A stretch of 64,000 bases of DNA from Axinella damicornis (taxonomy: Eukaryota > Porifera > Demospongiae > Axinellida > Axinellidae): assembly GCA_963931865.1 (NCBI GenBank), contig OZ007510.1, positions 1,573,205-1,637,204 on the forward strand, written 5' to 3'. Positions 6,301 through 64,000 of this stretch are shown here, piece by piece (position 1 is the stretch's first letter; each line of letters opens with the position of its first letter). The notes under the pieces were generated by a model that saw only the letters and a program-made list of their open reading frames with translations, had not been told where the DNA came from and searched no databases. The position numbers and the translations under genes were made by a program.

Positions 6301-8730
6301 CTGTGTGCTGCAGTACAGTTCTGTGTGCTGCAGTACAGTTCTGTGTGCTGCAGTACAGTTCTGTGTGCTGCAGTACAGTTCTGTGTGCTGCAGTACAGTT
6401 CTGTGTGCTGCAGTACGGTTCTGTGTGCTGCAGTACAGTTCTGTGTGCTGCAGTACAGTTCTGTGTGCTGCAGTACAGTTCTGTGTGCTGCAGTACGGTT
6501 ATGTACTGCAAGCAACGAAAAGTTGGGCGGGGGCCTGGGAAGGCCCTACAAATCCGGAGGACTGTTACATTACAAAGCCCGTTCAATGAGGCCTCTGGGT
6601 GAAGCTAGTGTATGAATGCAACTGGTATCTCCTGCACCATGGAAAACTAGTGGTGCTCAGCAGAGCACGTACCCCGTGCGCAACTTTGACTTGACAGCTA
6701 TAGGCCTACCACCTATGGAATTCCAAAGTGGACAAAATTGTGTCGCAGAAATAAACATCGTGCTGTGTTAAAAATGCACAAAAACACTATGCTATGGTGC
6801 AAAACGTAGAGAAGTCATGCTCAAAATGCGGAGACATCATGCTCAAAATGCAGAGACGTCATGCTCAAAACGCAGAGAAGTCATGCTCAAAATGCAGAGA
6901 CGTCATGCTCAAAATGCAGAAACGTCATACAGAGATGTCATGCGCAAAATGCAGACTAAAGTCATGCTCAAAATGCAGACTAAAGTCAGTCATGCTCAAA
7001 ATGCAGACTAAAGTCATGCTCAAAATGCAGACTAAAGTCATGCTCAAAATGCAGACTAAAGTCATGCTCAAAATGCAGACTAAAGTCAGTCACGCTCAAA
7101 ATGCAGACTGAAGTCATGCTCAAAATACAGAGATGTCGTGCGCAAAATGCAGAAACGTCATGCTCAAAATGCAAAACGCAAAATAACGCACATTATGTAT
7201 TTACGGTACAGTACGTGTTCTATTTAATTCCCACTCTAGCTGAAGTTAAGTTAGGGAACTACGTGAAGGTACTCGCGATCTGGATTCGTTCTGGCCCACG
7301 GTTATGAGCATCTGTGCGCAGCTCGAGCGCCACTACAACACGGACGACTTGTCTTTAGCTGAGCAGCTGATCCTGAGAGCAGAGGAATGCACTAGTGTCC
7401 TCAGGGCCATCTACGGAAGGGTTTGTGAGGTGCTGCCAGGTAGTGCAATCCTTCACGACGTCTTGAACCCCTAAACCTAGCTAGCTCAAGACTATGTCTG
7501 CCTTCAGGCTTTCAGCCCGCAAACGGTCAAGGTAGGTAAGTTGCTCTTACATTTCAAACATGCAGCTTGCATTTCTGCCTTGAGTGTACGGTCTGAGTCA
7601 AATACATTTTTTGGTTCTCCTTGAAAGCGCTACTGGTCCTACTACTGCTTTAGTCTGCATTTTGCGCATGACATCTCTATTTTGAGCATGACGTTTCTGC
7701 ATTTTGCGCATGACTTCTCTGCGTTTTGAGCATGACGTCTCTGCATTTTGAGCATGATGTCTCCGCATTTTGAGCATGACTTCTCTACGTTTTGCACCAT
7801 AGCATAGTGTTTTTGTGCATTTTTAACACAGCACGATGTTTATTTCTGCGACACAATTTTGTCCACTTTGGAATTCCATATTCCACCGATAATTCATACA
7901 GCATGCACGATGAGCTAGCTAGGCTACGATTTACAGCGCTATCAGCATGCAGAATGAGATACCGTAAGTTGCGGCAGTAATGTTAGAAATAGGGTGTGGT
8001 CAAGTTGTATAAATTAGAAGCACAACTTTCACGCAGCTTTTCTCAGCCTCTCGAGTAGATCTCTGGTCTGTGAGTTACGTAGACGCTAGTATTTTCTGAA
8101 TTCTGACACTTCTATCCCGAAATAAACCTTCAACAAGGCATTCACTGCTCAAACCACTCTACATCTATGGACAGACTGACAGACAAACTGATCACCCTGC
8201 TGTGCATGCGCACGGGGTAAATATTGAGTATACATGCAGTAGGGTATGGTACAGATTTACGTTGTGATCATCACTCACTGCAGGTTATCTTCCATTTCAT
8301 CCTCTCTCACATCGTTTGTAACTCTTTTGATGAATGGGCCTTGCGCAGGGCCCCGTCCACCGCTAGCAGTAGGCTGTTCGGTTACTACACTGTGCCTTTC
8401 CTCTTCTTCGGGTACACTGTCATACAGCCTTCTGTAGGCGTGCGCTTTTACAGTGCTTCTGTTACATACGCAACAGCCGCAGCATTTCTCTAGTTCCCTC
8501 ATAGTCTTGTCACTTTTCTTCAAATCCACGTTGATTTCGTCCAGTCGCTGCTCGACATTGTCCAGTTGTTCTCCTTGATCGTGTAGGGTTATGAGCGTAT
8601 CCACGCCCATGTGGTGAGTTTCTTCCGTGACCTGACGAATCCGCCTGGTAGCAGCCAAGCTATCGTCTGTTATGAGGTCGATCTTCTGATCAAGCAGGTG
8701 CCGTTCGTCGCCATCATGCTCATATGCCAT
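3310..8730 (-). CDS. SNAP-25-like Qbc-SNARE, copy 2
   Basis: Exon 1 is 8730-8279 and ends AACCTGCA before GTGAGT. Exon 2 is 3469-3310, after TTTCCTGCAG. The intron is 4.8 kb and phase 2, and the product is about 203 residues, the normal SNAP-25 length. The first SNARE helix runs ALDQKIDLITDDSLAATRR-like to HDQGEQLDNVEQRLDEIN. The palmitoylation cluster is KCCGCCVC, and the linker ends FIKRVTNDVREDEMEDNLQ. The second helix contains GGELDRQTSQVDRINKKAD with the zero-layer Gln, ending IRRQL. The start follows the family: ATG at 8730 leaves a short acidic leader before the helix. The long intron contains several transposon-like foldbacks and the 6.1- and 6.8-kb satellites. Confidence 0.9.
3545..3806. 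repeat. Near-perfect 120-bp-arm inverted repeat (hairpin)
   Basis: The left arm (3545-3665) and right arm (3686-3806) are almost exactly complementary, from GACTAGAAACAAAAAC to GTTTTTGTTTCTAG-like ends, with a loop of about 20 nt. It lies just upstream of exon 2 of SNARE copy 2, inside its intron. No flanking duplication was recognised. Confidence 0.92.
3813..5560. other. Intronic stretch with small unassigned ORFs
   Basis: No recognisable gene. One ORF, 4733-4960 (+), would encode 75 residues: a basic start (NEKERRKKKVEDDE) and one hydrophobic segment (IILSACLVWGVVASLAVFLL). It could be a first exon with a donor near 4831, or chance. The 5290-5589 ORF overlaps a frame on the opposite strand, and neither resembles a known family. 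Confidence 0.25.
5567..5693. repeat. Dispersed direct repeat, copy B
   Basis: This is the second copy of the 2067-2190 segment, same orientation, about 3.5 kb away. Confidence 0.75.
5766..5874. mobile_element. Foldback MITE with CCTCGTTCCCAGG ends
   Basis: The arms are almost fully complementary, reading CCTCGTTCCCAGGCCTTCAC inward to CGCTTGCAGTA. The loop is about 13 nt. The inner TTGCAGTA / TACTGCAA motif is the same one that flanks the 20-bp satellite at 6.1 kb. Confidence 0.85.
6057..6545. repeat. 20-bp satellite (about 20 copies) inside a foldback element
   Basis: The unit CTGTGTGCTGCAGTACAGTT repeats about 20 times between 6091 and 6508. Variants (CAGTACGG for CAGTACAG, GTACTG for GTGCTG) concentrate at the two edges. 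The outer sequence (CATTCCCAGGC ... GGGCCTGGGAA) and the inner CACTTGCAGTAC / GTACTGCAAGC boundaries are those of the foldback at 5766-5874. Long ORFs on both strands here are artefacts of the repeat. Confidence 0.92.
6713..7881. mobile_element. Non-autonomous element with long inverted ends and internal tandem repeats
   Basis: Sequence 6713-6960 is inverted at 7650-7881, starting TATGGAATTCCAAAGTGGAC on the left and mirrored on the right. The inner part of each arm is a tandem repeat of GTCATGCTCAAAATGCAGA-type units, amplified further on the left (to about 7180). The unique centre (7180-7640) holds only a 56-codon ORF and no transposase. Confidence 0.85.
7304..7474 (+). CDS. Small ORF in the centre of the 6.7-7.9 kb element, unknown
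   Basis: ATG at 7304 to TAA at 7472-7474 gives 56 residues (MSICAQLERHYNTDDLSLAE... ending LHDVLNP). It is amphipathic, with two cysteines in the body and no recognised motif. It may be a captured exon fragment or chance. It is listed because it is the only open frame in the non-repetitive core of the element. Confidence 0.25.
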   Translation: MSICAQLERHYNTDDLSLAEQLILRAEECTSVLRAIYGRVCEVLPGSAILHDVLNP

Positions 8731-32944: not shown

Positions 32945-35900
32945 CTAGTACTTTCCCCTTTTCTCTTTGCTGCTTCTATAATCAGTGGTTCTTTTTTCCC
33001 CCCATGCTTCCTTTTTAGGTGGTGGTGATATATCTTCTGCTGGTGGTAGCTCTTTATGTAGTGTTGCTGCTGATTTTTTATAGGCAAGTGGCCATTTCAT
33101 CATGGCAGAATGATCCGTTACCGCAGTGGGTGCTTCAAACTGCGGTGATGGCTTGGCAAAGTCCATGTTATCATCCGATTCTGAGTAGGAGAAATCTCTG
33201 TGCAGGGGTCCCCTTGGGGGTTTTGCTGCTGAAGGTGGTACATCATCATCATCGCTCTTCTGCTTCTGTCTATCTGAAACATAATCCAACCAGGACCATT
33301 TTTCTTTCTCTACTCTGGAAGTATACGCAGTGGCTGTCAGTAGTTCATAGGGTGACTGTGGTTTTTCCGGTTGTGGTTCCGCTCTGGAAGTAGTGGCTCT
33401 CTCTTGTTTGCTGATTGAACGTACCGATTCTGCCAGTTGTGGTTCTATTCTGGCTCTTGATGATTTGAATCCTGCTACTTGTATGGATGGTGCTCTGGTA
33501 TACGTAGTCTCGGTCCCAAGGCTAGCTCTGGGCCAAAATGGTCCTTTGGCCATGGGTGTTACATAAGCTGGTAAATGTGTTGATTTTACAGCTTCTGATT
33601 CTACGTCAGCTCCTGGTTCTACGTATACTAGCACACATACTTCTTGTGCTTCTGGATCGATATCTGGACTTTCTACGGTAAGGGGAATTTCTTCAATGTG
33701 GTCTAGTGTGGCAGAGACTTTATACTTTCCAGCTGCTGTTGGAATGCATGAAACTGCCCATGTATTGAGGCCAATTTTACGCACATCGCACACAGTTTCT
33801 GCACTAGAAGTAGTGTGGGTGAGTTGAACAACTAAGTCAGAGGCAGCCACGTACCCCTTCTCTGAGATGTCCTTGGACAGGTGCACTTCAAATTGGAGTT
33901 CTTGGCTAACTTTGGATTGTTTTGGTAGTGTCTTTACAAGAATATCTTTTGGTTGGATTTTGTGGCTTGTGACTCCAAATGTATTCACATGCTTTTCCAA
34001 GTTGGTATCAAATTTCACTCTCATCAGTGTTGGTTTAACTGAGTTTTTGTTCCAGTTTGCGTTTCTTAGGTTTTCAAGTGTTTGCGTAGCCTGCACACCC
34101 ATTGATACAACTTCTACATCACTTCCGTTTGCAAGAAGCTGCTGTGTAAAGCTGATACTGTTTAAGAGTTTCAGAAGGGTAAATTGCAGGCCATCAGCTT
34201 CACTATCCACTTGTTTCTTCTCTAAATCATGAATGTCGTGTAACTGCGCAATAAGAGCAGCCCGGCGAGATTCAATAGCTTCTTGCAGTCGGTGGCAGGT
34301 CTCATTCACTTCACGTTCACAAGCAGTGAGAGTATCGGTGCCTATTTTGCGGATATTCTCCACGTAATCGATGTAGTTCCTGTATTCAACTTCTTTGGCT
34401 TGTACCTCCTTATTCAAGCTCTCTAACTGCTGCTGAATTTCAGGACGGATTTCTCGGATGAAGACGAACTCGTGGTCTCGGTGTTCCACAAGAGCACAAT
34501 CTCGACAGATTACCTTCTTACATGTTTTACAAAACAGCTTCAAGACTTCATCCTCATGATCTTCACAATGCTGCACCTTTCCCAAGCTCTTTGCACCAGT
34601 TGGTTTGTCAGAATGCTTGATCTCTTCTAGTGAAACTGCGATGTGGCTTTGAGTGAACACTTGTTTTCTGTGGTTATTCCAGCATGCTTCACAGAGATAG
34701 CAGCAGCAATTTGAGCAGTATGCTACAGCATCACTTTCATCAAGTCCACTGCTGCATCGGATCACGGGAGAACACGTTTCACTCTTGTCAGCTGCTTCAT
34801 GGACCTGTGCAACAGTGATTGATACGCTAGTTTTAATATTATGCAGCAGCTGCATGCACGCATGCACATCTACTGCAAAATCCAAATTGTTGTTGTAGCA
34901 AACAAGAGTGCATTAGTAGGTCGCGCGGAGTAAGAGCGTGTAACTTCCGGAAAATTCAAACCGGGCAAAATACATGAGTTGTACTAAAAATAGCTATAGC
35001 GCGTCTAAACACTCTTGTAGTGATTCTTTCCGCCATGTGATAATTGACTAGAGCAGCGACACCATGATCATTATTCTGAGTTGTTGTGCACAGCTGTGTA
35101 GTTCTGAGCCAAATGATAGCAGGAAGCGACAGCGACAGCTACCAGAGAACGCTCTACGGCTGTGCTGAAGGCTAACCTAGTTAGCCTCGTACTCAGGCTG
35201 TATGAGGCTATAACCTAGTCTACTCAAACAGTCACAACAACAGTTATTGTGTGGATGTGCTTACCTGAGGCTGGAGGTGGAGGACGTCGACCTCAGCAAC
35301 GATCGGCACGGTGGGTTATAGGTTCAAATAAGCTCAGCCGGAGCTGAATTGCTAGCCACTTAGATCTTCGCACCTCGCTAATGCGTTCACAATTACCGCC
35401 CAGCTGTACGGCTTCAGGTGCAACCGGATGTTCTATTTTTAGTACAACTCAAGTATTCCGCCCGCACTGCGGGTGCCTATTGAAGTTACACACTCTTACT
35501 CTGGGGGGCACAATCTACTTATGTGCTCTTGAGCAAACTATTTGGTCACCACAGCTGTGTGACACTCCTTCCCACACTAATTCAAAGAATGCAGTGATTG
35601 AAAATATTTTAGTGGGAGGCTAGTGAAGTTTACTCAAGTGCAGTCAGAGCTGATACTTCATATATACCTCATTAGCCCCGTATACTTCAACCAGTGCATC
35701 ATTTAGAATGGGAAGAATAGTCACACAACTGTCTGTACTATATATAGCCAAGTGGATTGCTAAAATCAGCAATTTGGTTTTGCTGTGCATGCATGTGCAG
35801 GTCTTCTGAGCAGAGAGCAAACAAAACTATACTGGGAAATTAATTGTTCCTATAACAAAACCATTTGTCGAGATGCATCCATTCACCTCCATTCACCTCC

Positions 35901-39146: not shown

Positions 39147-42100
39147 TCAGGTTTGTGCTTTTATCTTCTTAAGTGCTGCTCTAGCTGCGGCAGACTTGGC
39201 AGCCTTGTGTGAGCTGGCCTCTGCACTGACTTGGATGCCCCGGTCGACCACCGTAAGCATACACCTCACACGCCCTCCCTTCTTCCAAGATCTGGAGTAA
39301 ATTGATGGTGCGGAGACAGTTTCACATCACTATGACCATCTAGTCAGGCAGGAGTCATGTCCTCCCCAAAACACACAAAACAGGTCTGATAATTACTTTA
39401 CATGAACACACACACATGTACTAGCCTCGTTCCCAGGCCTCCGCCCAGACTTTATCTCGCAGCCGTGGAGAAAAGTCGGGAGGAGGCCTGGGAACGAGGC
39501 TACACATGTACTGTGCACACACATTCTAGTACACATGCATATACACACACAACACATACACTCCTATTAATGCATTACTTTTAGCTCCCTAGACCATAAC
39601 GCGTAACACAAAAGAGAATACAATGTATCACATCGTCCCAAGATAGAAAGCTAATGTTCCAGCATACCTCTTGGTCTGTATATTGGGCTCTAATTCAAAC
39701 AGCTCTTGAATTGGAGGTACAGGGATTTTCCCCTCAAATTTATCTGCAGAAAAAGACCATCACAATAATAGTGCACATGATGAAATTAGCATCTCTCACA
39801 CAACACTTGGTGCAATATGGGCAACTAGAAGTCTAGAACTCCAAATTAAAACCAATTGAAGTGTGTGTTGCTGGCATACCCATTTTGGACTGAAAGAGTG
39901 GCGAGAAGACTCTCCACACAGTCTCTAGGTCCATCCCGCTGTCCAGGAATATGGCACCAGCCAAGGACTCGAGGAGGTCCCCCAGGACCTTTGGAGGGTC
40001 CAGTTCTTCCACCTCTTCATCACTGTCTTCTTCTTCTACTAGCAGAGGCTCTGATGCAGGTAGGGAGCCAGTGGCAGTCTGTGAGTAGTAAAAGGTAGCT
40101 AAGTTACTGACCAATATACTCTAACAGTTTTAAGAGACCAGGACATAGTGGGATGACAGGGCCGGCGCCAGCTATTTTGGAGTGGTACGGCCAATGCCGA
40201 AGGCAGTGCATATATAGAGGTGCATAGTGCCGATCAGTCCGCGCAAAGCGCGGAAATGTTTTTTCACCTTCATCTTTTAGTTAGCAGGATGAGCTCTCCA
40301 TAGCACCTTTGTGCTTTGCACTGCACTGCCACTACTTTCCATGACTGTCTCACTCTCGACATGGAAAGGAAAATGTAAGTTACATCACGAGCACCTCGTT
40401 GTTGAAGGTTGCCATCACAGCGCGTAAGTCCTGTCTCCATTCCGTGTGTCATCCCTAGACCATGAAAATTGATGCGATTCGAAACCAAGACTCGTGATAA
40501 CATGGAACAGTCCGTCGTTATGGTCGCGGCTTTGGCCGGCGGAAGCCTCAAGGATGAAACTTTGGATGTAGCTACTCGCTTGTCAGTCAGAATCCCAGCA
40601 ACGCCATTTTTTCTCCTCAAAAACTGGTACGGCCATGGCCGTACCGGCCGTACTGGTGGCGCCGGCCCTGGATGAGCGTGAGCAAGCTGCATGCTTGTTA
40701 TTACGTAACATAGTTACACCACCTCTAAAAGCTTTGCATGGGAGGACATTCAAGCGCATGGACTTTTACACTTCAAAGATTTTATTCGACGCATGCTGCG
40801 CTGTGGGATACAATTTTGTACACTGTAATAAGAGAAGGGTTGCTTTAACCAGACTCTGGTCACCATGGTTGCATCTCAGTGTCTCCTCCACAGTGGTGAT
40901 CAAAGAATGGGTCCACAGCCACAGAGGTTGTGTAGCTTCACTTCTAATGTTCCATAATAATTATTTACGTGACTTAGCTTAATTGTTTACCCATCTGTTG
41001 GAGGACCTATAGTGATCAAGCAGTGTAAATGAATGCACATTGTTTGGAAGTGCAGTTATCTCCTATGGTTACCTGGAACTAAGCTAAGTAGGCTTATTAC
41101 TATCCAATAGCTACTAATAGGACCAAAGAAGGCTGCACTTGAGTGCTCATTCACCAAGGCTGCATGAGATGCAACTGAGGTGACCACAGCATGGTTAAAG
41201 CAACCCTCCTCCTTTTACAGTGTAGGCCACATGTGTTTCCCCATAACGGAAAGCAGCTTACAGCAGGCATTTGGTTGCCTCCTGCTGTACTCTAAGATCA
41301 AAGTAGGCTGCACTTGTGTGCACATTCAGAATCTGGAACCAGAACCTGGGTTACAGCAAATGGCAATAATTTATTTTATTGCAGTTTATCAGTATCCAGA
41401 GCATCCTGGAGTCCTGCAAAACACTCACCCCCGAGTCATCCTGATCTCTACACAGAATCTCACTGCTCTCGACAACAGTTGTATTCTCCTCCTCCTCCTC
41501 CTCCATCATTCCATCTCTGGGGGAGAGTTTCTTCAGAGCTTCAATGTACTGCGGAATCTGCCTGAACAATGCCGGAGAGTTGTGGAGGAGGGCCTTGTGA
41601 AGCTCCAACTGAATGGCCAGTTCAGCAAACGTGATGTTGTTGACGAGGGCTGATCGCATCCCAGTGATTTCCCCCGGACCATAGTTGGGAAAGGTGGAGT
41701 AGATATTACAGGTAATGAGGTAATCGAGAACAGCATCACCTAGAAATTCCAGCCTCTGGTAGCAATCTGTAACTCTGTTCTTGGTGTACGAGGCATGGGT
41801 TAGGGCTTGCAGCAGGAGGGAGGGGTCTTGAAATGTCCAGTCAATCACTTTTTCAATTTTGTGGGAGTGCAGTTCATGCCGTGAACTGGAGCTCACTGTC
41901 AACAGTCGTTGAACTTCCAGTTGTTGACGGACACTGAGTACTGTTGGGGGATGTGGGCCAAAGTACTCTGATAGGATTGATGAAGAATTCCTGAAGAAGA
42001 GGTGCGAGTTAGCTGCCTTTTCAGTGGTGAGGGAACCGTGAGGCAAGGATGGTTTCAATCGCTTGGCTCTAGGTGGTTTGGGAGAAGCATCCTCAGCAGT

Positions 42101-45100
42101 AGACTTTGCACTGCAGGACTCACCTTTCGTGATCTTGACTCCCATCCATTTTGTGAACCTTAAACCCGCTTCTATCCCGCCAGAGACTAAGTAAGCCCCT
42201 ATGAGAGCCTCAGCGCAGTCTGCTACCCCCTTGTCTGTAACATGGTGGTACAGATAGTGGCGCTGCTGTTCTGGCATCCTGGTGGAGGCATGTCCAGCTC
42301 GCTGCTCCATGAGATAAGGGTCACCCTTGTTGAAGGAGAAGCAGGGAGGAATCCACATCTCCCTGGGCTCAAAGCCGGTGGACAAGATTTTACCAGTCAC
42401 ATCTCTCCCTTCTTGCTTTGCCAGAGAGCAGAGGTTGAGGTTCCCTACCCTACGCGATCGGGCAGATGTGAGCCTACCTTCATGGGCATGTGGTCGATCA
42501 CAGAAGAGAAAGACAGAAGTTGTGAGCTTGAGAAACGAGTCACCAAGTGTCTCAAGCCTCTCGAGGTTGATGGAATCATTGGCTTTTTTTGGCGTCATAG
42601 CTTGAAGTATGAGAGCATTGTCAGGGCCTCGAAGAGGGACATCAGAGTTCATGAGAATATGTACTTCTTCACTCTTGCCTGTAGTGATGAACTGCTGTGT
42701 TTCGAGCAGTCCAAACCCATAGTCCTTGTAGCCTCTCAGAGTTGTGTGGGTGGTCACTTCGCGGCCATCACGAATTAGACCAATGCCTGTGTCACTAGCT
42801 ACAGCTGACCTAAAGGCATCCATGAGAAGGATGCACTCCACCCTCCATAAGATTGAAGGAAGACACCTGGCGAGCTTCCAGAAGTTGGCAGGGAGTGGAT
42901 ACAAGGTACAAATCTCAGGAAATAGAATTATCTCGCTTTTCTGTACATTCCGGAACTGTTTGAGATCTTCTCCCTCAGTTGTCTTGAATCGAGAGGTGAT
43001 GAGCCTAATTCTAGACGCACTTATACCCACAGGCTTACATTCGAGTGCTGGCTGCTCTAGACAATGAAAGGAATGGCGGTATTTCGTTTCAAAGTACTCG
43101 GCAAAAGAGGCAGCTCTCTCGGGATCAGGGAAGCAAGAACGTGGGGTTGTTTTACGGTTGACACAAACAACTTCATAAAGCCTGCAGTCCTTGGGTGGAC
43201 AGTGGATTCCAGTGACCAAAGCATTTGTAAAGACTTCAAGCTTGCAAGGCCATTCTATAGGCTGCTCGCTGACGCAACGTCTACTCCCCATCTCAGCTAC
43301 CTTACTAGCTAGATCCAGATCTATGTATGCTTCCATGGGGTCTAGGTCGGGCAGAAAGCCTAGTGGCACAATCAGATAGTTCTTGGCAGCATTTTCAAAC
43401 TCTGGTTGAAGCCAGGTGGCCCTCACCCCCAGAATCTCAGTGAAGATGGTTTTGTGGCATTGCCGAAGAATCTCGAGTTCTGTGAGATTGAGTTCAGCTA
43501 CTAGACTGTGGTACTTGTACACTCTCACGTACACCTCCTTCTCACCATCATAGAGGGAGAACTCAGGAATCTGCAACAGAAGAAACATGCATAGCACATT
43601 GAGGGTAAAGTTTATACAGTTACAGAATGGCTTATTCATTGAACCTGGATCCCAGGCTTAGTACATAGATTCAGGAAGACTACACTCTTACATACCTTGA
43701 GGTGTGGTAGGGGATTCCTGGTTAGGATGCCCAGAGCAGTGTGAGAATAATTCTCATCGGGAAAGCCTAGGGGAAAGCCTAGGTGGACATTCCCGGTTTC
43801 TGCATCATGCACCACAAAGACATAGAGGTGGTTGCCAGGTCCAGAGATCGGAAAACAGTTGGTAAGGGAGGGGGCCACCTGCAGATACATGGGTGCATAA
43901 TGTAAATAAGGACTCCGAAATATTAGCACGCTCATTACTGTACACACTTTAATGTATGAAGGGTTTGTGAAACACCATTCTTTGTCAATTTTCAAATCAT
44001 GCATGGTCGTTTCTTATAGAGACTTGAACTACAAGGTAGGTTCACAACTCTGACAAATACCTCATTGGGGTAGTCATGGGCTCTCTTTTCTGTCCCAGCA
44101 TTCGGCTTTCTCTTCTCCTCCATCTTGGCCACATCCTCCTCATCAGAGTCCATGCTCTTGGAGATCGGGACGAGGTGGTTGTCCAGCTCCCCTGCCTTAT
44201 GCAGCTGCTTTATTCCCTCCAGTGCTGCTGACTTGTCCGCAATACGGCTTGTTGGCATCCAATCACCCTGCAGGGGTAGTCACAGTTACAAGGTAAAAGT
44301 ATGATGCTAGTGCTACAATTCAAAATCAAAGTACGACATACTAACAGCTCAGCAAGTAAGAGCTATTTGCAAACATCAGATGGCAAATGGACTTTCCATG
44401 TTCTGTGATTCTTTACGACTGCCAACTCAGCACTAGCACTACTCAACCAGAACGTACCTCAATCTCTGTTCTGACTGGGCAACTCATGGGAAGTGTGAGA
44501 GTGCTGCGATACTCAAACTCTTGTCCAGAAATTGACAGAGGTGTAGCAATGGTGGCGGTGGGATTACGGCATGATTCAGAGTGTGTGAGCACGCTACGCT
44601 TCTCTGTCTTGAAAATGGGGGTGAGGATCGTGTACCGATCAGAAGGAAGCTTCTGACAATACCTGGAAGTACAAAGGAGTCAGGTTACTCCACAGCTTAT
44701 CGGGAATCACAATATCAGTAGAAACTGTGAATACACAGCTAGTGAATATACAGTGTTTGTGCTTCTAAGGAAATGGGACATTCTTGTTTTGCAGCTGCAA
44801 AAGTAACAAGCTATGTATACACACAGGCTATTTCAAACTGAAGATTATTCACTCAAGAGTGATGGAGGGCAGGAAATGGTGCTCCACTAGAAGGAAAAAT
44901 GGCTTGCTAGATTTAACAGCATTCACCTACCTATGAATGAGGGGTAGACTTGAGCTGAGAGTTGCCCTTGTGCCCGCCTCTCTCCCAAAAGGCATGTATG
45001 GAGACACTACCTCCTCCATCCTCTTCAAGATGTCCTCTTCTCCGGGGACATCTCGGTTGTGGCAGAGACGTTTCAGTTCCTCTTCGAGCTCCCGATAATC

Positions 45101-48100
45101 CGAGAGCTGTGAGCGAACCTCAGCCTCCTTCTTCCCTTCAATGAGAATTAGGTATGTAGACTCCTTTGCTCGAGCACGACCCTTCGACTGGATATACGAT
45201 CGCAAATTCTGAGGAAAATCAAACCTGACAACCAGATTGCATTTCGGAACATCAACTCCCTCTTCTACAACACTGGTTGCAACCAAGAGGTTGAGCTTCT
45301 CCTTGCGAAACTTTTCAAGAATCTCATTCTGTTTCTTCACACTCATGTGCGCTTCTCTCCTCACGTAGGTCATGCCTTTCCCCGCATTGTGTCCGACTAT
45401 GTACTCACACTTAAGGTGCCGAAGGTCAGGGTCATCCCGGCTCTTCTGCATCAGTAGCTTTGTGAGGAGAGCTGCAGTGGTGCGACGCTCAACAAAAATG
45501 ATCCCTAGGAGACGGGTAACTGACTTCTTGCGAGCGTGGGTTCCGCCTGCAGCAGGTTGTGGTTTGGTAGATCCAACATTGACTTCTCCATCGGAGATCC
45601 CTGAGTCGCCAAGGTGGCGAAGCAGAGCTTGCACTTTGGGTGTAATGGGTACTCTTGCAAGCCAATTTGCTTTCAGCTTCTTGTCACTTTTCTCCACGAA
45701 TATCTGGAGATGAGTTCTCCCCAGGTGTAGCAGTGAATTCTCCCATCTACTTTCCACATCTTCGGCTTCGTCAACTACCCTTTCGATGTCTTGAAGAGCT
45801 TGCTTAGCAAAATCATGCGCACACCAGATTCCGAGATTCTCCAAAATGTGCAACCCATCGTCAAGGTGAAGTTTGACAAATTCATACACTCTCGTTTTCT
45901 GCTCCTTTTTGAAGGAGTTTAGGAAGTTCAGAGGATCCTCTAGAATTCGTCTCAGTTCACGGTCATCCCCACTGGAGGAATAGTGCAGAGTTTTCTCAAC
46001 TGGGTTGGTTGCATACTTGGCTACTTCAACCATATCTTTGGCAGTCTGTGATCGACATCTGAGTGTTTCTTCAAGAACTTTAATCTTTTTCTCTAAATCT
46101 CCCGGTTTGCACTTACTTGGAATCAAGGAAGCAGTTAAGCCCAAGAGTCGAGGGACCTCAATGTCATTCTTACAAGAATCGAAGACCTTCATAATCTGGA
46201 CATAGTCGTCGTTCTTAACAGCATGATGACACTCATCAAAGACAAGGAGATTTATTTGCCTCAAATGAACAAACCCGCGAAGCAACAAGTTCAAGAAAAT
46301 TGCTCGTGTCATGACCAGAACATGATGCTCGTCAAACTCTCGCAGCCACCGGTCGGGGAGCCACGAGTCCACATTCATATCTCCCGTGTATTCACCCACT
46401 TCCAAGTGGGTGTGGTTCTTAATGTAGCCGGATTGTTGATGAACGAGAGGTACTGTAGGCATAGAAAAGCAATTCATTGGCCATAAATGGTTGACTATTC
46501 GATGGCATAGCACAATTTGGACAATGACACAATATGTAACAGATGATGGAGTCAACTTAAGGTAGCACATACCCCTTTACCGTTAGGATACGTTATACCG
46601 TTAGGATACCTTTAACCGTTAGGATACCTTTACCATTAGGATACCTTTAACCGTCGGGGCCCTAGCTACCTTAAGGTAGCTCATACCCCTTTACCGTTAG
46701 GATACTTTTAACCGTCGGGGCCCCGGGGGTATGTGCTACCTTAAGGCTGATCACTACCATATAAAGCGTGTCCAAGAAGAGTATGTGGGTTCAAGAAGAG
46801 TATGTGCTGGTCATGTACACCTGTAGCTACAATGGCTTCATGTTGAGCAACACCAAGCATTAAGTACACTAAGCACATTGGTGCCTACACTAATTGATCT
46901 CACAATTAAATTTGCATGGTTATCTAGGTGGGTTGTTGGAATTCAGCCTTCTACAGTCATGTAAATTTCACTGAATGCAAGGAGGTACAGTTAACCCAGT
47001 TTGAAGGGGGCTACAAAAAACAAATTCAGGCAGTAGTAGAGGGCTGAATCTTTCCATTGTGTAGAGTAGTTCATCTATTTTCTGACGCCATCAAGCGGAC
47101 AATGCTCAGACATAGTAAGATAACCAACCGTACTTGGTGTGTTTTCTCATGAGGCAGTGAATAAGAAGCAAAAGAATTCAACAGCTTGTAGGCTATGCCA
47201 CAAATTGTTCTAATAGTCAATGCTATCAGGCCATCAACATTCGAAGGGCAACCTCTATCTTCTGGGCTGTATACTTCAATCGTTGGACATCATTCCACGA
47301 CCAGGCTTGATAAAATGCTGCTACACGGTCTACAGAGTTGAAGTGCAGTCGCACACAACAACAGTAGCAAATTAGAAACTACGGTGTGCATAGGATTAAC
47401 TCCCCATGTGGAACGTAGAAAGCATTAGGCCACTCCAAATTAGACTTCAGTTTCCCGTCCACACTTCTTAGAAATTGAATGCGGGCGGGCGGGCCATTAC
47501 CATTATTCATTACTGTGAATATAATTACCTGTACGGCCAAGCAGCAATGAATAAAGCAAAGATAACACAAGAAACCATAGATAACTGACATTGCGGTTGA
47601 AGCGCAGGCTAATAATGATGCAAAGAGCAATAATGGTCAACCATGCGGTCTTCTCTGGGTGGGGCGGGCGGAGGACGGGAAACTAAAGTTTAATTTGTAG
47701 TGGCCTTAGCGTTTGTAGGACCGTTGTTGCAAACAGTCCAGCAGTGTCAGATTTTTATGGTATCCGATGATTGATGGCGTACTCTACAGTTGCAATGGAG
47801 CAGCATCATAGCCCCCACCTCAAGCAGCCATTGGAGTAGCTGTCTGCGGTCTTTTGGTGCTATAGTCACAGTACAGGGTCTTTGACTGTGTGCACTTAAT
47901 TTGCTAACCCTGCCATAATATAGGCTTAGCCCCCCCCCCCCCCCCCCCCCCTTACCTGTGTTAACGAGAAACACGGTCCTCTGCGCGCCGTCGGTTCTAA
48001 ACCGTTCCAGGATCTGGTACGACAACTCTCGAATAAGCATCACTGCGATAAAGGTCTTGCCCGTCCCCGTGCCCAGGTTGACGATCGTGTTCTCGTTGAG

Positions 48101-56266: not shown

Positions 56267-59200
56267 TCAAGTGTCATCAGTTGTCTCATTGGTCTGCTGA
56301 TCATCCTGTGCTGGTGAGCAGCTGCTATTCCTGTTCTGCTGATGCTGATCATCCTGTGCTGGTGAGCAGCTGCTACTCCTGTTCTGCTGATCATCCTGTG
56401 CTGGTGAGCAGCTGCTATTCCTGTTCTCCTGCATCTTAGACAACAGTCTCTGAACACACGTTGCACTCGCCTGCTTCAAGTCGTGCTGCAGAGGTACGTG
56501 GAATCAGTGTTCAAGGCTGAATGCATAAAGCACATAAATGGGGGATGAATGGTTTATTCAAGCCTGTTTTTGTTGCACGTAAATTGGTGAAAGTTGTGCA
56601 GGATTGAGTGCAAACATATTATACCTGGAGTATGTGTACTCCTCCCATGGAGACCACAGCCAGCTCTGAGAGGCCATCGTGGGTGAGGTCACCGTACCAC
56701 ACCTGGTGGATGGGGTGGGCAAAGTTGCGCTGCCATGTCAGCTCAAACTGTGAGCAGGAATGCGAGTCTGGAGCACTAGGAACGCCACCTGCACACATCG
56801 CAAGTGTGGGGGGATGAGAGAATTATAAGGCATATGCACAGTACCAACTCCATTCATACTACTGGAAGGTTTCTACTAACCAGTTTCATGGAGACGGTAA
56901 ACCAAAACTTCCTGCAGGTATACAAAGAACGTTTGTAAGCCATACAGTCAGCAAATCCAGTCACCCAACTGCATGACCCCCACTGCATGGACGCCTACCT
57001 TGCCATAGGTGCCTAGAATCAACTCCTTCCGTCCATCCCAGTTCACATCTGCCACCTCGGCACATAGCACACTGTCATGCAGGTGAGACTGAGGGAGAAA
57101 CAGTGGCCTGCTGAAACCATTCTCCAGCACATTCCTGCAGTTGGGAGACGATTCTTGGTGAATCCTTTGTCCTTTTGGCAGAAAACATGCAGAAGTAAAT
57201 TTGGCTTTTAAAATTTGAAACTGGAACTAAATCTCTGTACATTACTGTAAAACAATATCTGCATTTTCCACTGATAACTGCATTTCCAAATTTACTTCTG
57301 CATGTTTTCTGCCAAAAGGTTGCCATAGTTAAATAACTGAACATTGTCAAGTGATGGCGGGAACCCAACTAAAATCATTCCAGAATCTACAAACTACTTA
57401 CAGAAATACTGCTCCCAGCTCAATAGCAGATCCCACAAGGAGATGGTAGTCGTCTATACTTTCTAAGGAGCATAAGAAATCGAGAGAGAGCATGGTACAG
57501 TGAATGAGCACACTGTCATACTAGCAAGACTGTGTGTGTCTACATATTCATACCCGAGGTCTGAACTCCACTTTTGCAAGTGAAGAACTTGACTGAAGTG
57601 ATGGGACCATCAATCATCTTTGTGCTCCAACACTTCAGCATATCTGCACACGCAAAGAAATTGGGGTGGGGTGGGGGGAGAGAGAGATCAATACTTGTAG
57701 ACTAATGACTCACAAGGCAAATCTCTTACTGTTTGAGGTCAGGTCTACCAGAGCACACTGGAGATAGCCTGTTTGGCATCCAAGACTGGTAATTCGCTGG
57801 AAACCAACAAGCTTGATATCCATGTAGGTCACACTGCTGGGGAGGTCTTGTAGCTCAGGAAACCAGCCATTGGATGGCTCCTCTTGAAAAGACAGCTGCA
57901 CACATACAGAGAACAAAGGTGGTTTTGCAATTGAGAATGATCGCTTCTTACATAATGGCATTTACAGTAGTACATTACATATTGTGTGTCGGTGGCATCT
58001 CTACATAATTATAGAGTCAGAGTCTATCAGCTCTTCAGTTACTGCATGCTGGAAAGAAGTTTGCTTGGTACCATCCAAGCACAAACCTAGGGGCCTACAA
58101 CAACTATATATTAGATGTACCTCTGAGAGACATTCTTCTCGGTATAAGTGCACCTTGAGGTCATCTCCTGCTAGAAGGAACACAGTCTCCCACTTATCAT
58201 CAGCAAAAATCCTGCAACAAGAGCGAGGTACTAATAAGGAGGTTCACACAGAGTCGAGCCATGTCACTCACTGGGTGTGTGTTAGCTGGAAGGGGATGAA
58301 TTTCAGGTTCAAGGGTTGCCAGTCCTCTGTATACAGAGATTCATGTAGATCAAAGTCAATGAAGATGTATGTATGTAAGTGCTGTGGGTGGCCATATGGG
58401 AAGACTGACAGTAGCTTGCTCACCTGCAATTTTTTCCCACTGAAAGGGTTCGTTTGGATCACAGTGGATCCCATACAAGTTAAAGAATATCTCCTTAGGT
58501 TCTGAGTCTCTCTGCACAAAGTAGAGACTTTAGAGTGGAGGCAATACTCCATGGAACCAACACAGATTTGGGAATACCTTGATCAGCGTTACACCAAAGA
58601 TGAGCCCTTTAGGTTCTTTCACAAACGCATCAATGGAGATCACTTCCGCATCACCTGGTGTGCATCAGCATGTATGTACGTGTATGTGGGAATGTTGGTA
58701 TGTTTCATGAATGGTATGGAACAATGTATTTCATTGGTTAGGTTTTGTGAGTGATATAGTGCAACAAGAGTTTGCACAAAAGGAGCAGACAAAATATCAT
58801 GCACGTTACTGAAACAATTATTGTTAAACAGCCACGGTCCATGTTTTGGTAATAATCAAAGTTTTGTGGATGTTGAAACAATGTATGCTTTTGGTTAAGT
58901 TTTGGGAGTGATAGTGAAACTTATATTTTCACAACAAGAGTTTGCACAAAAGGAGCAGACAACATACCATGCACTGTTACTGAAACAGTTATTGTTAAAC
59001 AGCCACGTACTGTCCATGTTTTGGTAATAATCAAAGTTTTGTGGATGTTGAAACAATGTATGCTTTTGGTTAAGTTTTGGGAGTGATAGTGAAACTTATA
59101 TTTTCACAACAAGAGTTTGCACAAAAGGAGCAGACAACATACCATGCACTGTTACTGAAACAGTTATTGTTAAACAGCCACGTACTGTCCATGTTTTGGT

Positions 59201-62200
59201 AATAATCAAAGTTTTGTGGATGTTGAAACAATGTATGCTTTTGGTTAAGTTTTGGGAGTGATAGTAAAACTATATATCACAACAAGAGTTTGCACAAAAG
59301 GAGCAGACAACACATACCATGCACTGTTACTCAAACAATTATTGTTAAACATCCACTGCTCATGTTTTGGTAATAATATGGAGGTTACCCAATAATAATT
59401 ATGGAACAATGTACGTATGTTTTTGGTTACGCTGTGAAACTAATGGCAAAGGAAAGTGTCGTAGCTTTGAACTTGATATTAGGAGTTCTCCTTCCTACAC
59501 TTGCAGAGGGGTTGGTGGTGACAATCTCTCAGAGTCGATCGCAGTGCCAAGCAAGCAAATGTCTCACGCTGAGAGAATGCTTGACTGACCCTGGATCTTG
59601 TTTCACTCCACACACCGTCATTAACTTTCTCCCAGGAGACCATCAAGCTGCACACAGGTATGTGATTGTGAGTGACATTAGCAACATAACTTTACAAGGC
59701 AGCGTGCAGAACAATGCCCCAGCTGTCAGAATCCTTTGCTCCAAAGCGGGCCTTGCTTTCGTGCAGGTTGAGATGCTAAATATTTCAGGGATATCGTTTC
59801 TTGGCTGTGGAGCACCTATACCCGACCAACTGAAGAGGGAAGCCATGCAACAGAGAACAAGAACATACCTTGTAATGTTTGAAGGGACTAAGGTAGCCAT
59901 ATTTTTGGTCAATGTACTTAACCTAAACATGAGCCAGATGCACGTTAACGACAGCGATGGATACGGCTTGCTCGCTTTGAATGTGTTCGGGTCTTCAAGA
60001 ATTACCAGCTGTGTCTTTTCTCATAACAATCGAAGGGCACTAGTTTACCATCAACATAACCCACTCTACTGCAGAGGAGAAGCAACTGAAAACACCACTT
60101 CATGCTCGGGAGGTAATGCGGTCTTCATCTTCATGGATACAACAACTCACTGCCCAAGTCTTAAACCTACACACTTGCTGTGGATTGCTGGATCAACTTT
60201 CAGCCATGGTGTCAACTATGATTACCAGGATTGGGGTCCCCCGCCACGATATCTCAGTGCTGCAGGCGGACTAAGCATCTTCTCGGGACAGTCATCCTAC
60301 ACAATGTGGGTTTTCATCAACAACTCCGTCATTGATGCAAATATTGGCTTCTCTGGAGCAAATGTATTCATATCTCTTCATGATCAATACCATGCAGACT
60401 GTGAAGTGACAGTTGAAAATAGTCGCATTAGCAATGGCAATGCTGGTGAGAGCTTCCTTTCCAAAGTAGGCTTTACTTCAGGGATTCACATATACTACGG
60501 ACCAGCTACATCTGTGAGCCATCAGCCTATTTGCCATGACAGGTGCACGTCAGAAAGATACTTACTTGACTGCGGCAGAGGATATTGCCAAGATAAAAAC
60601 CTCAAGAGTGTTTGGGTTTTCAAATGCTCTCTGTTCGGTAATGCTGCATTCTGGGGGGCTGCATTTCACGTTGAGTCCTTACTTGGTTCTGTCAAGTGCA
60701 TTAACAGTAAAGTGACACTGGAAGATTGTGATATACATGACAATATTGGAGTCGATTCAATAGTCCAAGCAACAGAATACCATCATGATGGAGTGAACGA
60801 CGGTTATTCTTCCATGGAATTCACAATAAAGAATGGCACAAAATTACACCACAACAAACTGGTAAAGTTAGGAATAGTGGAGAACAAGCCGCCAACACTC
60901 AAAGATGATCCTGCCCAGGCAGTAATATTCGTGGATAAACTCTATATTATGAGGTTTGAAAACAGTACCATAAGCGACAATATGGGTACCGGTTTGCACA
61001 TGAAATCAGGTAGTCTCAGCATCAAGGGTGAGAGCTACATAACCAGAAATAGAGGCAATCTCGGTGGAGGGATCATGATCGGTCGTGCAGTATTTGATTT
61101 GTATTATGCAGCATGTCTATTCATTGAAGAAAACCAGGCTACATATGGGGGAGGTATCTTTGTCGTGACCAAGAAATATAGTTATAAGCTGCGTAAAGGA
61201 TGTTTCTTTGATGTTCTCAGTTCACAAATTACAAATGGAACTATACACACAGGTGCCCAAGTTGTATTAAGAAATAACAGAGCCACAGTTGCTGGTAATT
61301 CTGTATATGGAGGTGACATTGACAAATGTTACATGCAAGCAGACATTCACAACCAACTTGATGAGGTTGTTGTATTCCGTCAACTCTTCTCCATTCCTAA
61401 CACTACGCTCACTGAAGTTAGTTCAGACATTCGTCAGCTGTGCTTCTGTGTCCATCAATTCCCGCAATGTGATATCCAGGGTCACGAAGCGGAAGCTTAT
61501 CCTGGCCAGGAGTTCTATGTGTCCGCAGTCGCAGTTGGACAGCTGAACGGAACAACACCTGCAGTAGCATTGAGTAGTCTAGCAGAGGGGTACACAGCAG
61601 AGTTTGAATCACAGCAAGCTGCACAACAGTTGGGGACTGTTTGCGGTGATCTAGCGTACCGAGTAAGCACCAATGAATCTTTTGTTCTCTTACAGCTCCA
61701 TGCAAACTACGAAAGAAGCCTGAATCCCTCTGAGCTTGTGACTCTGAGTGTTTCACTGACATTACAAGAATGCCCATTGGGGTTTGAGCTATATGTTGAC
61801 CTAGGCAGATGTGACTGTATCACCTTCTTAAGTACTAAGGGAGTAACATGCCTTATAGATCATCAGAGCTTTGTAAGACCATTTCCCCTTTGGATTGGGT
61901 ATCAGAATCATTCCGAGAGAATTCTAGTCCACGATACTTGCCCTTTTGGTTACTGCAAGACAGAAAGTACAGAAGTGACTCTGAACACCACAGATATGCA
62001 GTGCGAGTTTGATCACTCTGGGGTTCTTTGTGGTGGTTGTAAGAAAGGATTGAGTGTTGTGTTTGGGAGCTCTCGATGTCGATCATGCTCAAATGGTTAC
62101 CTTGCATTTCTCCTGCTGTTCTTGCTAGCCGGATTTCTGCTGGTGTTAGCGATGATTTACTGTGATCTAACCGTCTCAAAAGGGACACTCAATGCACTGA

Positions 62201-64000
62201 TCTTTTATGCTAACATCGTGAGAGTTAACCAATCCATCTTTTTCCCACCTGGTCAAATCAATGCTTTCACCGTGTTCATAGCCTGGTTGAATCTGGACCT
62301 TGGGATTGAGTTGTGCTTCTATGATGGGATGGATGCGTACGGCATGACCTGGCTACAATTTCTGTTCCCCATCTATATCTGGGTGATAGTTGGAGTAATC
62401 ATAGTTGCAAGCTGGTACTCTTCCACTGTAGCAAGGATCTCAGGCTCAAACGCAATAGCAGTGTTGGCAACTTTATTTCTCCTCTCTTACACCAAACTCC
62501 AGCGTACAATTCTGTCTGCGTTTTCATCCACAGTCATCAACACGCACGATGGTGACTCATTTCCTGTGTGGCTCTACGATGGAAATGTCCCATTTCTGGG
62601 TACAAAACATGCTTTTCTCTTTACCGCAGCGATTGCAGCAGGCATAGGGTTTGTACTTCCCTTCACTCTTGTAGTGCTCCTTGGTCCTCTTCTGCAGGCC
62701 AAGTTAGGTTACCGCATGCTACAACTGAGACTGACACCAATACTGGATGCATACCAAGGTCCTTATAAGGACAGATTTAGATGCTGGACAGGTATAATGC
62801 TGTTGGTGCGCAGTTTCTTGCTTTTGGCTTTTGTCCTAAACATTCTCGGAAGTCCACGACTAAATCTTGCCATCATCATGTCAACCATTGCTGTATCTCT
62901 TGGATTTACTTGGAATGTGGGTGCCATCTACAAAAAGCTTATCAATAACATACTTGAGACATTCTACATCGTCAACTTGGGACTACTGGCTACATGGACA
63001 GCATTTAACCAGCAGGACTCACCTAAACACATTCAAAATCAAGCAGTCATTGCTAACTTTTTTGTTGGTACTGCATTTGCTACTTTTATGATGACAATCC
63101 TTTACCACACTGTCTTACAAATCAGAAGGTTCATGCACTCTCGAGCTCACTACTGGTGTCAGAGAAACCAGCGTGAACCTTGCACCCAGCAACAACAAAT
63201 ACAGCTGCAGCAAGTTGACGAATACGGCTCACCATTACCAGTCCATAGTGCTCGTCCTCCTACAGTGAGCTATGTTGCACTAAGTCAACTAGAAACTCCG
63301 TGCTCGGCTAACGATGCACCTGGCAATCCCAGTAATTCGTAAAGTAAACACAACAGCACTTTCAATAATTAACACTTGTTGTTATAGCAGACATGCAATT
63401 TTGAACTCACTTTCACACTGATTGAATAACTTCACGATTGCTTCCACTCAAAAACCAACAATAAACTTTGTGTAACATACTTCCCACTTTACTCTTGCAA
63501 GCCACACCCTTCGGAGTGTGGTTGGGTAATTGGCCATCAGCGGCAATACCACAATCACTATCAACAGGAGCGCATCGAGCCGGCTTTGCTGGCTCGATGC
63601 ACCCCTGCTATCGACCTGCTCACTGCTCCCCTCAACACATCAAACACTCGACATACTGATAACAATGATTCTGTCGTATCCTGATGCGAAGGGTGTGGTT
63701 TGCATGACACTATAATAGATGATTTCTGTTCAATTCCTGTTTACCTGGAATGTAGGAGAAATTGATGGGATAGAAGAGAGGAGGTCGTAGGGGGTTCTTG
63801 TGGAACTCCAGGCAAAAGATCTGGCCCCTTAGAGTTGCCACCAGCAGCTTGCTAGAGCCACTGATCCTCAGGCTGCACAGCCCATAAATATTGCTTTGCC
63901 TGTGACCAGGGAAAGCAACAAAGTTTGCCTCATGAAGCTTGATAGGTGAGGCTGGTGAACGAGTGACAAGGTCTTCACCTCCTTGTTGTGAGTTCCCGAA
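56267..64000 (-). CDS. KPTN: Kaptin (KPTN), KICSTOR subunit, 5' end outside window
   Basis: Exons 64000-63745 (partial), 58654-58578 and 58511-58424 join in phase. Others lie near 58.33, 58.2, 57.9-57.73, 57.64, 57.47, 57.13-57.0, 56.93-56.88 and 56.79-56.63 kb, and the last ends at TGA 56267-56269. In vertebrates kaptin belongs to KICSTOR, which brings GATOR1 to lysosomes and restrains mTORC1 when nutrients are low. Visible features are the beta-propeller N-terminus ([20 protein letters not shown]), [49 protein letters not shown], the FG-GAP-like blades ([40 protein letters not shown]), and a terminal helix ([19 protein letters not shown]). The C-terminus carries three copies of a 14-16 residue repeat ([14 protein letters not shown]). 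The 5.1-kb intron 58655-63744 encloses an antisense gene. Confidence 0.93.
57169..57319. repeat. Inverted repeat in a KPTN intron
   Basis: CCTTTTGGCAGAAAACATGC / GCATGTTTTCTGCCAAAAGG. The arms extend through AGAAGTAAATTTGG, about 35 bp each, with a loop of about 80 nt. Confidence 0.88.
58755..59395. repeat. Tandem repeat of about 173 bp, 3-4 copies, upstream of the nested gene
   Basis: AACAAGAGTTTGCACAAAAG recurs near 58763, 58932, 59108 and 59281. Each unit contains GGAGCAGACAACATACCATG, TGTCCATGTTTTGGTAATAA and GAAACAATGTATGCTTTTGG. The last, partial copy runs into the first ATG of the 1313-codon ORF. Confidence 0.9.
59401..63342 (+). CDS. Intronless multi-pass membrane protein with beta-helix-like ectodomain
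   Basis: One open frame of 1313 codons with no intron. ATG at 59443 is the likelier start: it gives [20 protein letters not shown] followed by AEG, a good signal peptide, whereas the first 14 codons derive from the upstream repeat. Residues about 40-640 form a long ectodomain with many N-glycosylation sites and recurring short Asn/Gly-rich strands ([75 protein letters not shown]), typical of right-handed beta-helix (pectin-lyase-like) folds. A Cys-rich segment follows ([29 protein letters not shown]). From about residue 898 there are 8-10 hydrophobic helices and then a Gln-rich cytosolic tail. I recall similar proteins as expanded, uncharacterised families in sponges. Function unknown; a cell-surface receptor or adhesion role is a guess. 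Confidence 0.92.
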   Translation: MEQCTYVFGYAVKLMAKESVVALNLILGVLLPTLAEGLVVTISQSRSQCQASKCLTLRECLTDPGSCFTPHTVINFLPGDHQAAHRYVIVSDISNITLQGSVQNNAPAVRILCSKAGLAFVQVEMLNISGISFLGCGAPIPDQLKREAMQQRTRTYLVMFEGTKVAIFLVNVLNLNMSQMHVNDSDGYGLLALNVFGSSRITSCVFSHNNRRALVYHQHNPLYCRGEATENTTSCSGGNAVFIFMDTTTHCPSLKPTHLLWIAGSTFSHGVNYDYQDWGPPPRYLSAAGGLSIFSGQSSYTMWVFINNSVIDANIGFSGANVFISLHDQYHADCEVTVENSRISNGNAGESFLSKVGFTSGIHIYYGPATSVSHQPICHDRCTSERYLLDCGRGYCQDKNLKSVWVFKCSLFGNAAFWGAAFHVESLLGSVKCINSKVTLEDCDIHDNIGVDSIVQATEYHHDGVNDGYSSMEFTIKNGTKLHHNKLVKLGIVENKPPTLKDDPAQAVIFVDKLYIMRFENSTISDNMGTGLHMKSGSLSIKGESYITRNRGNLGGGIMIGRAVFDLYYAACLFIEENQATYGGGIFVVTKKYSYKLRKGCFFDVLSSQITNGTIHTGAQVVLRNNRATVAGNSVYGGDIDKCYMQADIHNQLDEVVVFRQLFSIPNTTLTEVSSDIRQLCFCVHQFPQCDIQGHEAEAYPGQEFYVSAVAVGQLNGTTPAVALSSLAEGYTAEFESQQAAQQLGTVCGDLAYRVSTNESFVLLQLHANYERSLNPSELVTLSVSLTLQECPLGFELYVDLGRCDCITFLSTKGVTCLIDHQSFVRPFPLWIGYQNHSERILVHDTCPFGYCKTESTEVTLNTTDMQCEFDHSGVLCGGCKKGLSVVFGSSRCRSCSNGYLAFLLLFLLAGFLLVLAMIYCDLTVSKGTLNALIFYANIVRVNQSIFFPPGQINAFTVFIAWLNLDLGIELCFYDGMDAYGMTWLQFLFPIYIWVIVGVIIVASWYSSTVARISGSNAIAVLATLFLLSYTKLQRTILSAFSSTVINTHDGDSFPVWLYDGNVPFLGTKHAFLFTAAIAAGIGFVLPFTLVVLLGPLLQAKLGYRMLQLRLTPILDAYQGPYKDRFRCWTGIMLLVRSFLLLAFVLNILGSPRLNLAIIMSTIAVSLGFTWNVGAIYKKLINNILETFYIVNLGLLATWTAFNQQDSPKHIQNQAVIANFFVGTAFATFMMTILYHTVLQIRRFMHSRAHYWCQRNQREPCTQQQQIQLQQVDEYGSPLPVHSARPPTVSYVALSQLETPCSANDAPGNPSNS
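63460..63465 (+). terminator. Polyadenylation signal AATAAA
   Basis: A canonical hexamer 118 bp after the stop of the nested gene. This suggests the gene has its own transcript end inside the KPTN intron. Confidence 0.65.
63496..63708. mobile_element. Small element with inverted ends and an internal hairpin
   Basis: GCAAGCCACACCCTTCG is mirrored by CGAAGGGTGTGGTTTGC. Inside is a perfect stem GCATCGAGCC / GGCTCGATGC (63574-63602) with a 9-nt loop. It lies between the nested gene and the KPTN exon at 63745. Confidence 0.8.

What the first reader, a model, noticed from the sequence alone, without database searches (positions are those of the whole stretch)
59401..63342. Intronless beta-helix/multi-pass membrane protein nested antisense in a kaptin intron
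Every other gene here is split into small exons, yet this 1313-codon frame is uninterrupted. It sits inside one KPTN intron whose flanking exons (63745 and 58654) join in phase. Signal peptide, a beta-helix-like ectodomain of about 600 residues, a Cys-rich juxtamembrane block and 8-10 membrane helices form an architecture with no named function that I know of. An extracellular beta-helix joined to a polytopic domain would suit recognition of glycans, microbes or self. The lack of introns suggests origin by retroposition or spread of a lineage-specific family. It is the best candidate in the window for an undescribed system.
Basis: partly seen in the sequence, partly recalled or inferred. Interest (0 to 1): 0.85.

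Follow-up and report, generated by a model that had tools for sequence, protein, structure and literature searches.

The report
Intronless beta-helix nine-helix membrane receptor
An uninterrupted gene inside an intron of the kaptin gene encodes a predicted cell-surface protein with a long outer spike of a fold often used to bind sugars, joined to nine membrane helices; it belongs to a very large family for which I found no published function.

The parts
59401..63342 (+). Single-exon ORF, 1313 codons plus stop; probable true start at the ATG at 59443 (Met15)
   Evidence: start inferred from P0002 aligning only from Met15
59443..59511 (+). Likely signal peptide, about residues 15-37 (cleavage site not predicted)
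   Evidence: Hydrophobic segment 11-44, peak 2.01; low-confidence helix 10-34
59512..61320 (+). Right-handed beta-solenoid ectodomain, residues about 38-640
61321..61815 (+). Mostly beta-stranded domain with six conserved Cys columns, residues about 641-805
   Evidence: strands; columns at 85% or more
61816..62091 (+). Cys-rich juxtamembrane stalk, residues about 806-897, nine conserved Cys columns; weak DUF7630 similarity at 866-896
   Evidence: DUF7630 E 5.8 with the whole protein, 0.026 with residues 840-1313 alone, below the curated cut-off
62092..63102 (+). Nine-helix membrane domain, residues 898-1234, N outside and C inside; short helix 2 is followed by a broken segment with the NLDLG motif
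   Evidence: Model pLDDT 85.9, pTM 0.82; Lys/Arg count 16 in inside loops and tail against 1 in the four outside loops between helices
63103..63339 (+). Cytoplasmic tail, residues 1235-1313
   Evidence: lacks the LREPLL-like end motif of 86 of 120 family rows
63460..63465 (+). AATAAA, possible polyadenylation signal
58762..59377 (.). Tandem array, 175-bp unit, 3.6 copies, directly upstream of the ORF
58655..63744 (-). Host intron of kaptin (KPTN)
63745..64000 (-). KPTN exon before the host intron (continues beyond the window)
58577..58654 (-). KPTN exon after the host intron

Best explanation
The gene encodes a kind of cell-surface receptor. Supported by models and conservation: a secreted right-handed beta-solenoid of about 600 residues, a beta domain and Cys-rich stalk, then nine membrane helices with the C-terminus inside; it is one member of a very large family. 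Inferred: the solenoid binds a carbohydrate or another surface ligand without cutting it. Binding, or force on the solenoid, is passed through the disulphide-rich stalk to a membrane domain that works like TRP-like calcium channels of the fungal Flc/Pkd2 kind, so that recognition lets in calcium or a similar signal. Variation among relatives is greatest outside the membrane, which fits many specificities on one shared signalling domain.
Confidence: 0.4

Rival explanations
1. Surface receptor as described, but the membrane domain is not a channel. It couples to cytoplasmic partners or internalises bound material (scavenger-like uptake) or transports something.
For: No PF06011 match. Conserved Lys, Arg and Asp within the membrane region. 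86 of 120 family rows carry an LREPLL-like acidic/leucine motif near the C-terminus, which could be a sorting signal (that reading is recalled, not tested).
Against: One of the three best structural neighbours is named a TRP channel. The window protein and P0002 lack the LREPLL-like motif.
Confidence: 0.3
2. Adhesion or mechanosensing protein: the solenoid is a lever fixed to matrix or neighbouring cells and the membrane domain senses tension. Paralogues differ by cell type rather than by ligand.
For: A long solenoid plus a Cys-rich stalk would make a stiff lever (inference). Fission-yeast Pkd2 is described as activated by membrane stretching (PMC12028594, passages).
Against: The size and fast ectodomain divergence of the family are more typical of recognition than of a general mechanosensor (inference).
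Confidence: 0.15
3. Membrane-tethered carbohydrate-active enzyme (lyase, epimerase or glycosidase).
For: The highest-ranked solved folds are largely polysaccharide lyases, epimerases, glycosidases and phage tailspikes.
Against: No conserved acidic, basic or His column at 85% in residues 45-640 over 120 rows. The same fold list includes adhesins without known catalysis (PfbA, pertactin complex).
Confidence: 0.07
4. A decayed or silent copy that has not yet acquired stops.
For: Intronless, nested, no transcript evidence here.
Against: 1313 open codons; the window protein keeps all 110 columns that are at least 95% conserved in the 119 relatives; an 81% identical relative of 1311 aa; a possible polyadenylation signal.
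Confidence: 0.04

Closest known systems
Right-handed beta-helix (pectin-lyase-like) proteins: phage tailspikes, polysaccharide lyases and epimerases, bacterial adhesins
   Different: Those are phage or secreted/surface bacterial and plant proteins without a nine-helix domain (recalled); no family-wide candidate catalytic residues here
Chlamydia polymorphic membrane proteins (PF02415 repeats)
   Same: 15 of 37 family members scanned match the Chlam_PMP repeat; FxxN and GG[AGS]-type motifs average 7.6 and 3.5 per family protein
   Different: The window protein has no PF02415 match and only 3 and 2 such motifs, near the shuffled means of 1.9 and 0.6, the latter for a slightly wider pattern; helical membrane domain instead of an autotransporter barrel
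Fungal Flc/Pkd2 TRP-like proteins (PF06011, usually with an ML or ML-like domain; PMC9600462, passages)
   Same: Extracellular domain before a polytopic domain; structural match to giant-virus proteins, one named TRP ion channel
   Different: No PF06011 or PF14558 match; beta-helix ectodomain; a huge family rather than a few genes
Animal single-pass proteins with parallel beta-helix repeats (fibrocystin, TMEM2/CEMIP; recalled, not searched)
   Same: Beta-helix ectodomain on an animal cell surface
   Different: One membrane helix rather than nine
Expanded sponge recognition families (SRCR and NLR from search listing with abstracts; Amphimedon GPCR paper, listing and one passage)
   Same: Large families of likely recognition proteins
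   Different: Different domains; nothing seen in these names this architecture

Membership tests
Right-handed beta-helix superfamily | Pfam Beta_helix profile at the curated cut-off | tested here: met
   PF13229 25.9 bits at cut-off 25.9, E 8.4e-6; borderline
Right-handed beta-helix superfamily | Beta-solenoid fold | tested here: met
Polysaccharide lyase / epimerase / glycosidase | Conserved catalytic acidic, basic or His residues in the solenoid | tested here: not met
   0 such columns at 85% or more in residues 45-640 over 120 rows; a subfamily-specific site is not excluded
Chlamydia-type Pmp | PF02415 repeats | tested here: not met
   Absent in the window protein, present in 15 of 37 members scanned
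Chlamydia-type Pmp | C-terminal autotransporter beta-barrel | tested here: not met
   Nine helices instead
Fungal Flc/Pkd2 (PF06011) | PF06011 profile match | tested here: not met
   Absent for the window protein at E 10; not among families shown (one family of 26 not shown)
Fungal Flc/Pkd2 (PF06011) | ML-like N-terminal domain (PF14558) | tested here: not met
   Absent; beta-helix instead
Fungal Flc/Pkd2 (PF06011) | Shared membrane fold | tested here: inconclusive
   Giant-virus matches with probability 1.00 but E 3.7e-3 to 8.8e-2; no fungal structure was compared
Fungal Flc/Pkd2 (PF06011) | Calcium conductance | not testable with these tools
   Needs electrophysiology or calcium imaging
Animal TRP/polycystin channels | Six-helix voltage-gated-like channel fold | tested here: inconclusive
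   No such chain among the 50 rows shown or; a missing row does not exclude it
GPCR | Seven-helix receptor fold | tested here: inconclusive

The most novel reading that the evidence does not exclude
A large undescribed animal receptor system, probably of sponges: thousands of intronless genes, many in local clusters, each joining a private beta-helix recognition spike to one shared TRP-like calcium-channel domain, serving self/non-self or symbiont/food discrimination.
Probability: 0.2. Interest if true: 0.92.

Novelty: new variant of a known kind. Interest (0 to 1): 0.62.

Why it matters
If the reading holds, an animal lineage without antibodies has a receptor family whose size rivals known immune and chemosensory families and which no paper found in my ten searches describes. 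How sponges tell self from other and symbiont from food is a long-open question (recalled), and a defined family with a shared signalling domain would make it testable. It would also extend TRP-like domains of the Flc/Pkd2 kind to animal recognition.

Tried and rejected
Retroposition at this copy: no direct repeat of 9 or more bases between the intron flanks outside the ORF and no run of 7 or more A or T in the intron. An old event cannot be excluded.

Other members in this window: none found. tblastn of 120 family proteins gives nothing outside the ORF better than E 0.03.

DNA of relatives, for dN/dS or for the nested location: no locus found in genome contigs or viral contigs (one of eight scans used).

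Counting paralogues in the window's own genome: the genome search did not complete, so copy number per genome and the species stay unknown.

Solved structures: sequence and profile searches give only chance-level hits; the membrane model has no clear fold match. Animal TRP channels are absent from the rows shown and GPCRs weak, which does not exclude them; no fungal Flc structure was seen.

Local duplication: same-contig was judged by equal contig length, and one group (6413 bases, 34% identity) is probably a coincidence; 15 of 38 members have their nearest relative elsewhere. Without same-genome copies on other contigs as a control, local duplication is a fit, not a proof.

Literature: ten searches listed no paper on this architecture; only open-licence PMC papers are held and only listings with abstract starts were seen. 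In the choanoflagellate GPCR paper PMC12716839 the beta-helix terms have no occurrence, nor in the Amphimedon GPCR paper PMC4302439. A social-amoeba GPCR paper, PMC10445921, names PbH1 once, in its abbreviations.

Considered and rejected: chance ORF, NCBIfam match (none), COX7C hit (below cut-off).

Full report
What is there. The ORF 59401-63342 (+) is open for 1313 codons. Its closest relative, P0002, is 81% identical over 99% of the length but aligns only from Met15, so translation probably starts at 59443. An AATAAA lies at 63460 and a 175-bp tandem array of 3.6 copies ends just upstream of the ORF.

The host gene. On the minus strand, exon 63745-64000 ends at a GT donor and exon 58577-58654 follows an AG acceptor, and they join in phase as [16 protein letters not shown]. 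The joined protein matches KICSTOR kaptin chains (9o5a_E, E 2.4e-45), with the alignment running through the junction. The intron holding the ORF is 5,090 bp; the next four, by exon ends read by eye, are 57 to 226 bp. Neighbouring frames encode a Dicer-like protein, a B-box protein with a weak filamin repeat and a tubulin-tyrosine-ligase-like protein.

The family. The search scored 7,988 candidates and found 2,009 at E<=1e-3; 120 were listed, one of them the window's own. Of the 119 others, 113 are 1,150 aa or longer and 86 lie within 5% of 1313 aa. The database may favour uninterrupted frames, so split relatives could be missed and 'intronless family' is shown only for what was found. A second search with the membrane part alone found 1,332 proteins of shorter length at E<=10; some may be fragments. 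The window protein keeps all 110 columns that are at least 95% conserved in the 119 relatives. In the 15 such groups of the first list, identity averages 84% against 40% for all pairs; 23 of 38 members have their nearest relative in the group, and four groups (10 members) show none. This fits recent duplication, partly local. The window holds no second member.

The membrane domain. The model of residues 840-1313 has pLDDT 85.9 and pTM 0.82; I read nine membrane helices from it. With the N-terminus outside, inside loops and tail hold 16 Lys/Arg and the four outside loops between helices hold 1; the 41 stalk residues before helix 1 hold 4. No solved structure fits clearly. In the viral library the first, third and fifth rows are Megaviridae proteins with probability 1.00; the fifth is named TRP ion channel. 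That this name stands for the PF06011 kind is recalled. PF06011 is not matched by sequence. I therefore say it may work like Flc/Pkd2 but do not file it there. Fungal Flc proteins carry PF06011 and mostly an ML or ML-like domain (PMC9600462, passages), and Pkd2 is described as a putative stretch-activated calcium channel (PMC12028594, passages).

Variation. In 230 pairs with 85-97% identity in the membrane domain, mean identity is 91% there, 90% in the Cys-rich stalk, 82% in the beta domain, 76% in the solenoid and 73% in the tail. In 454 pairs at 70-97%, mismatch peaks in the solenoid at residues 381-400 (0.71), a stretch that many rows lack. Strand and non-strand positions differ little (0.37 against 0.36), so no binding face is shown.

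Ordinary parts. Single-exon and nested genes are common in several sponge genomes, although counts depend on annotation (PMC10282587, passages), so location and lack of introns alone are not remarkable. What is unusual is the architecture and the size of the family. No paper describing it was listed in ten searches (named under Tried and rejected), which cover open-licence papers only.

Noticed in passing
window 58762-59377: 175-bp unit repeated 3.6 times (95% matches) directly before the nested ORF, possibly its promoter region or an insertion scar.
   Followed up: no
window 63572-63600: Perfect 10-bp inverted repeat with a 9-base loop in the kaptin intron downstream of the ORF, seen by eye.
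   Followed up: no
window about 57170-57330: Inverted repeat of about 30 bases in another kaptin intron, seen by eye, resembling a small mobile-element relic.
   Followed up: no
window 41351-46576, minus strand: Dicer-like gene (helicase, partner-binding domain, PAZ, RNase III) with large open frames of 549 and 768 codons.
   Followed up: partly
window 32945-34912, minus strand: 655-codon open frame with a B-box and a filamin repeat below cut-off, a TRIM-like protein.
   Followed up: partly
window 5954-6615: Two overlapping plus-strand frames of 211 and 212 codons made of a repeated short peptide; looks like a tandem repeat rather than genes.
   Followed up: no
family alignment A1, C-termini: 86 of 120 rows carry an LREPLL-like motif in their last 45 residues and 51 a PT[VTI][ST] motif; the window protein keeps only the second.
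   Followed up: partly
Cys-rich stalk, residues 866-896: Pfam DUF7630 recurs weakly in 42 of 57 rows scanned (best E 1.8e-5) and 21 of 37; no held paper mentions DUF7630.
   Followed up: partly
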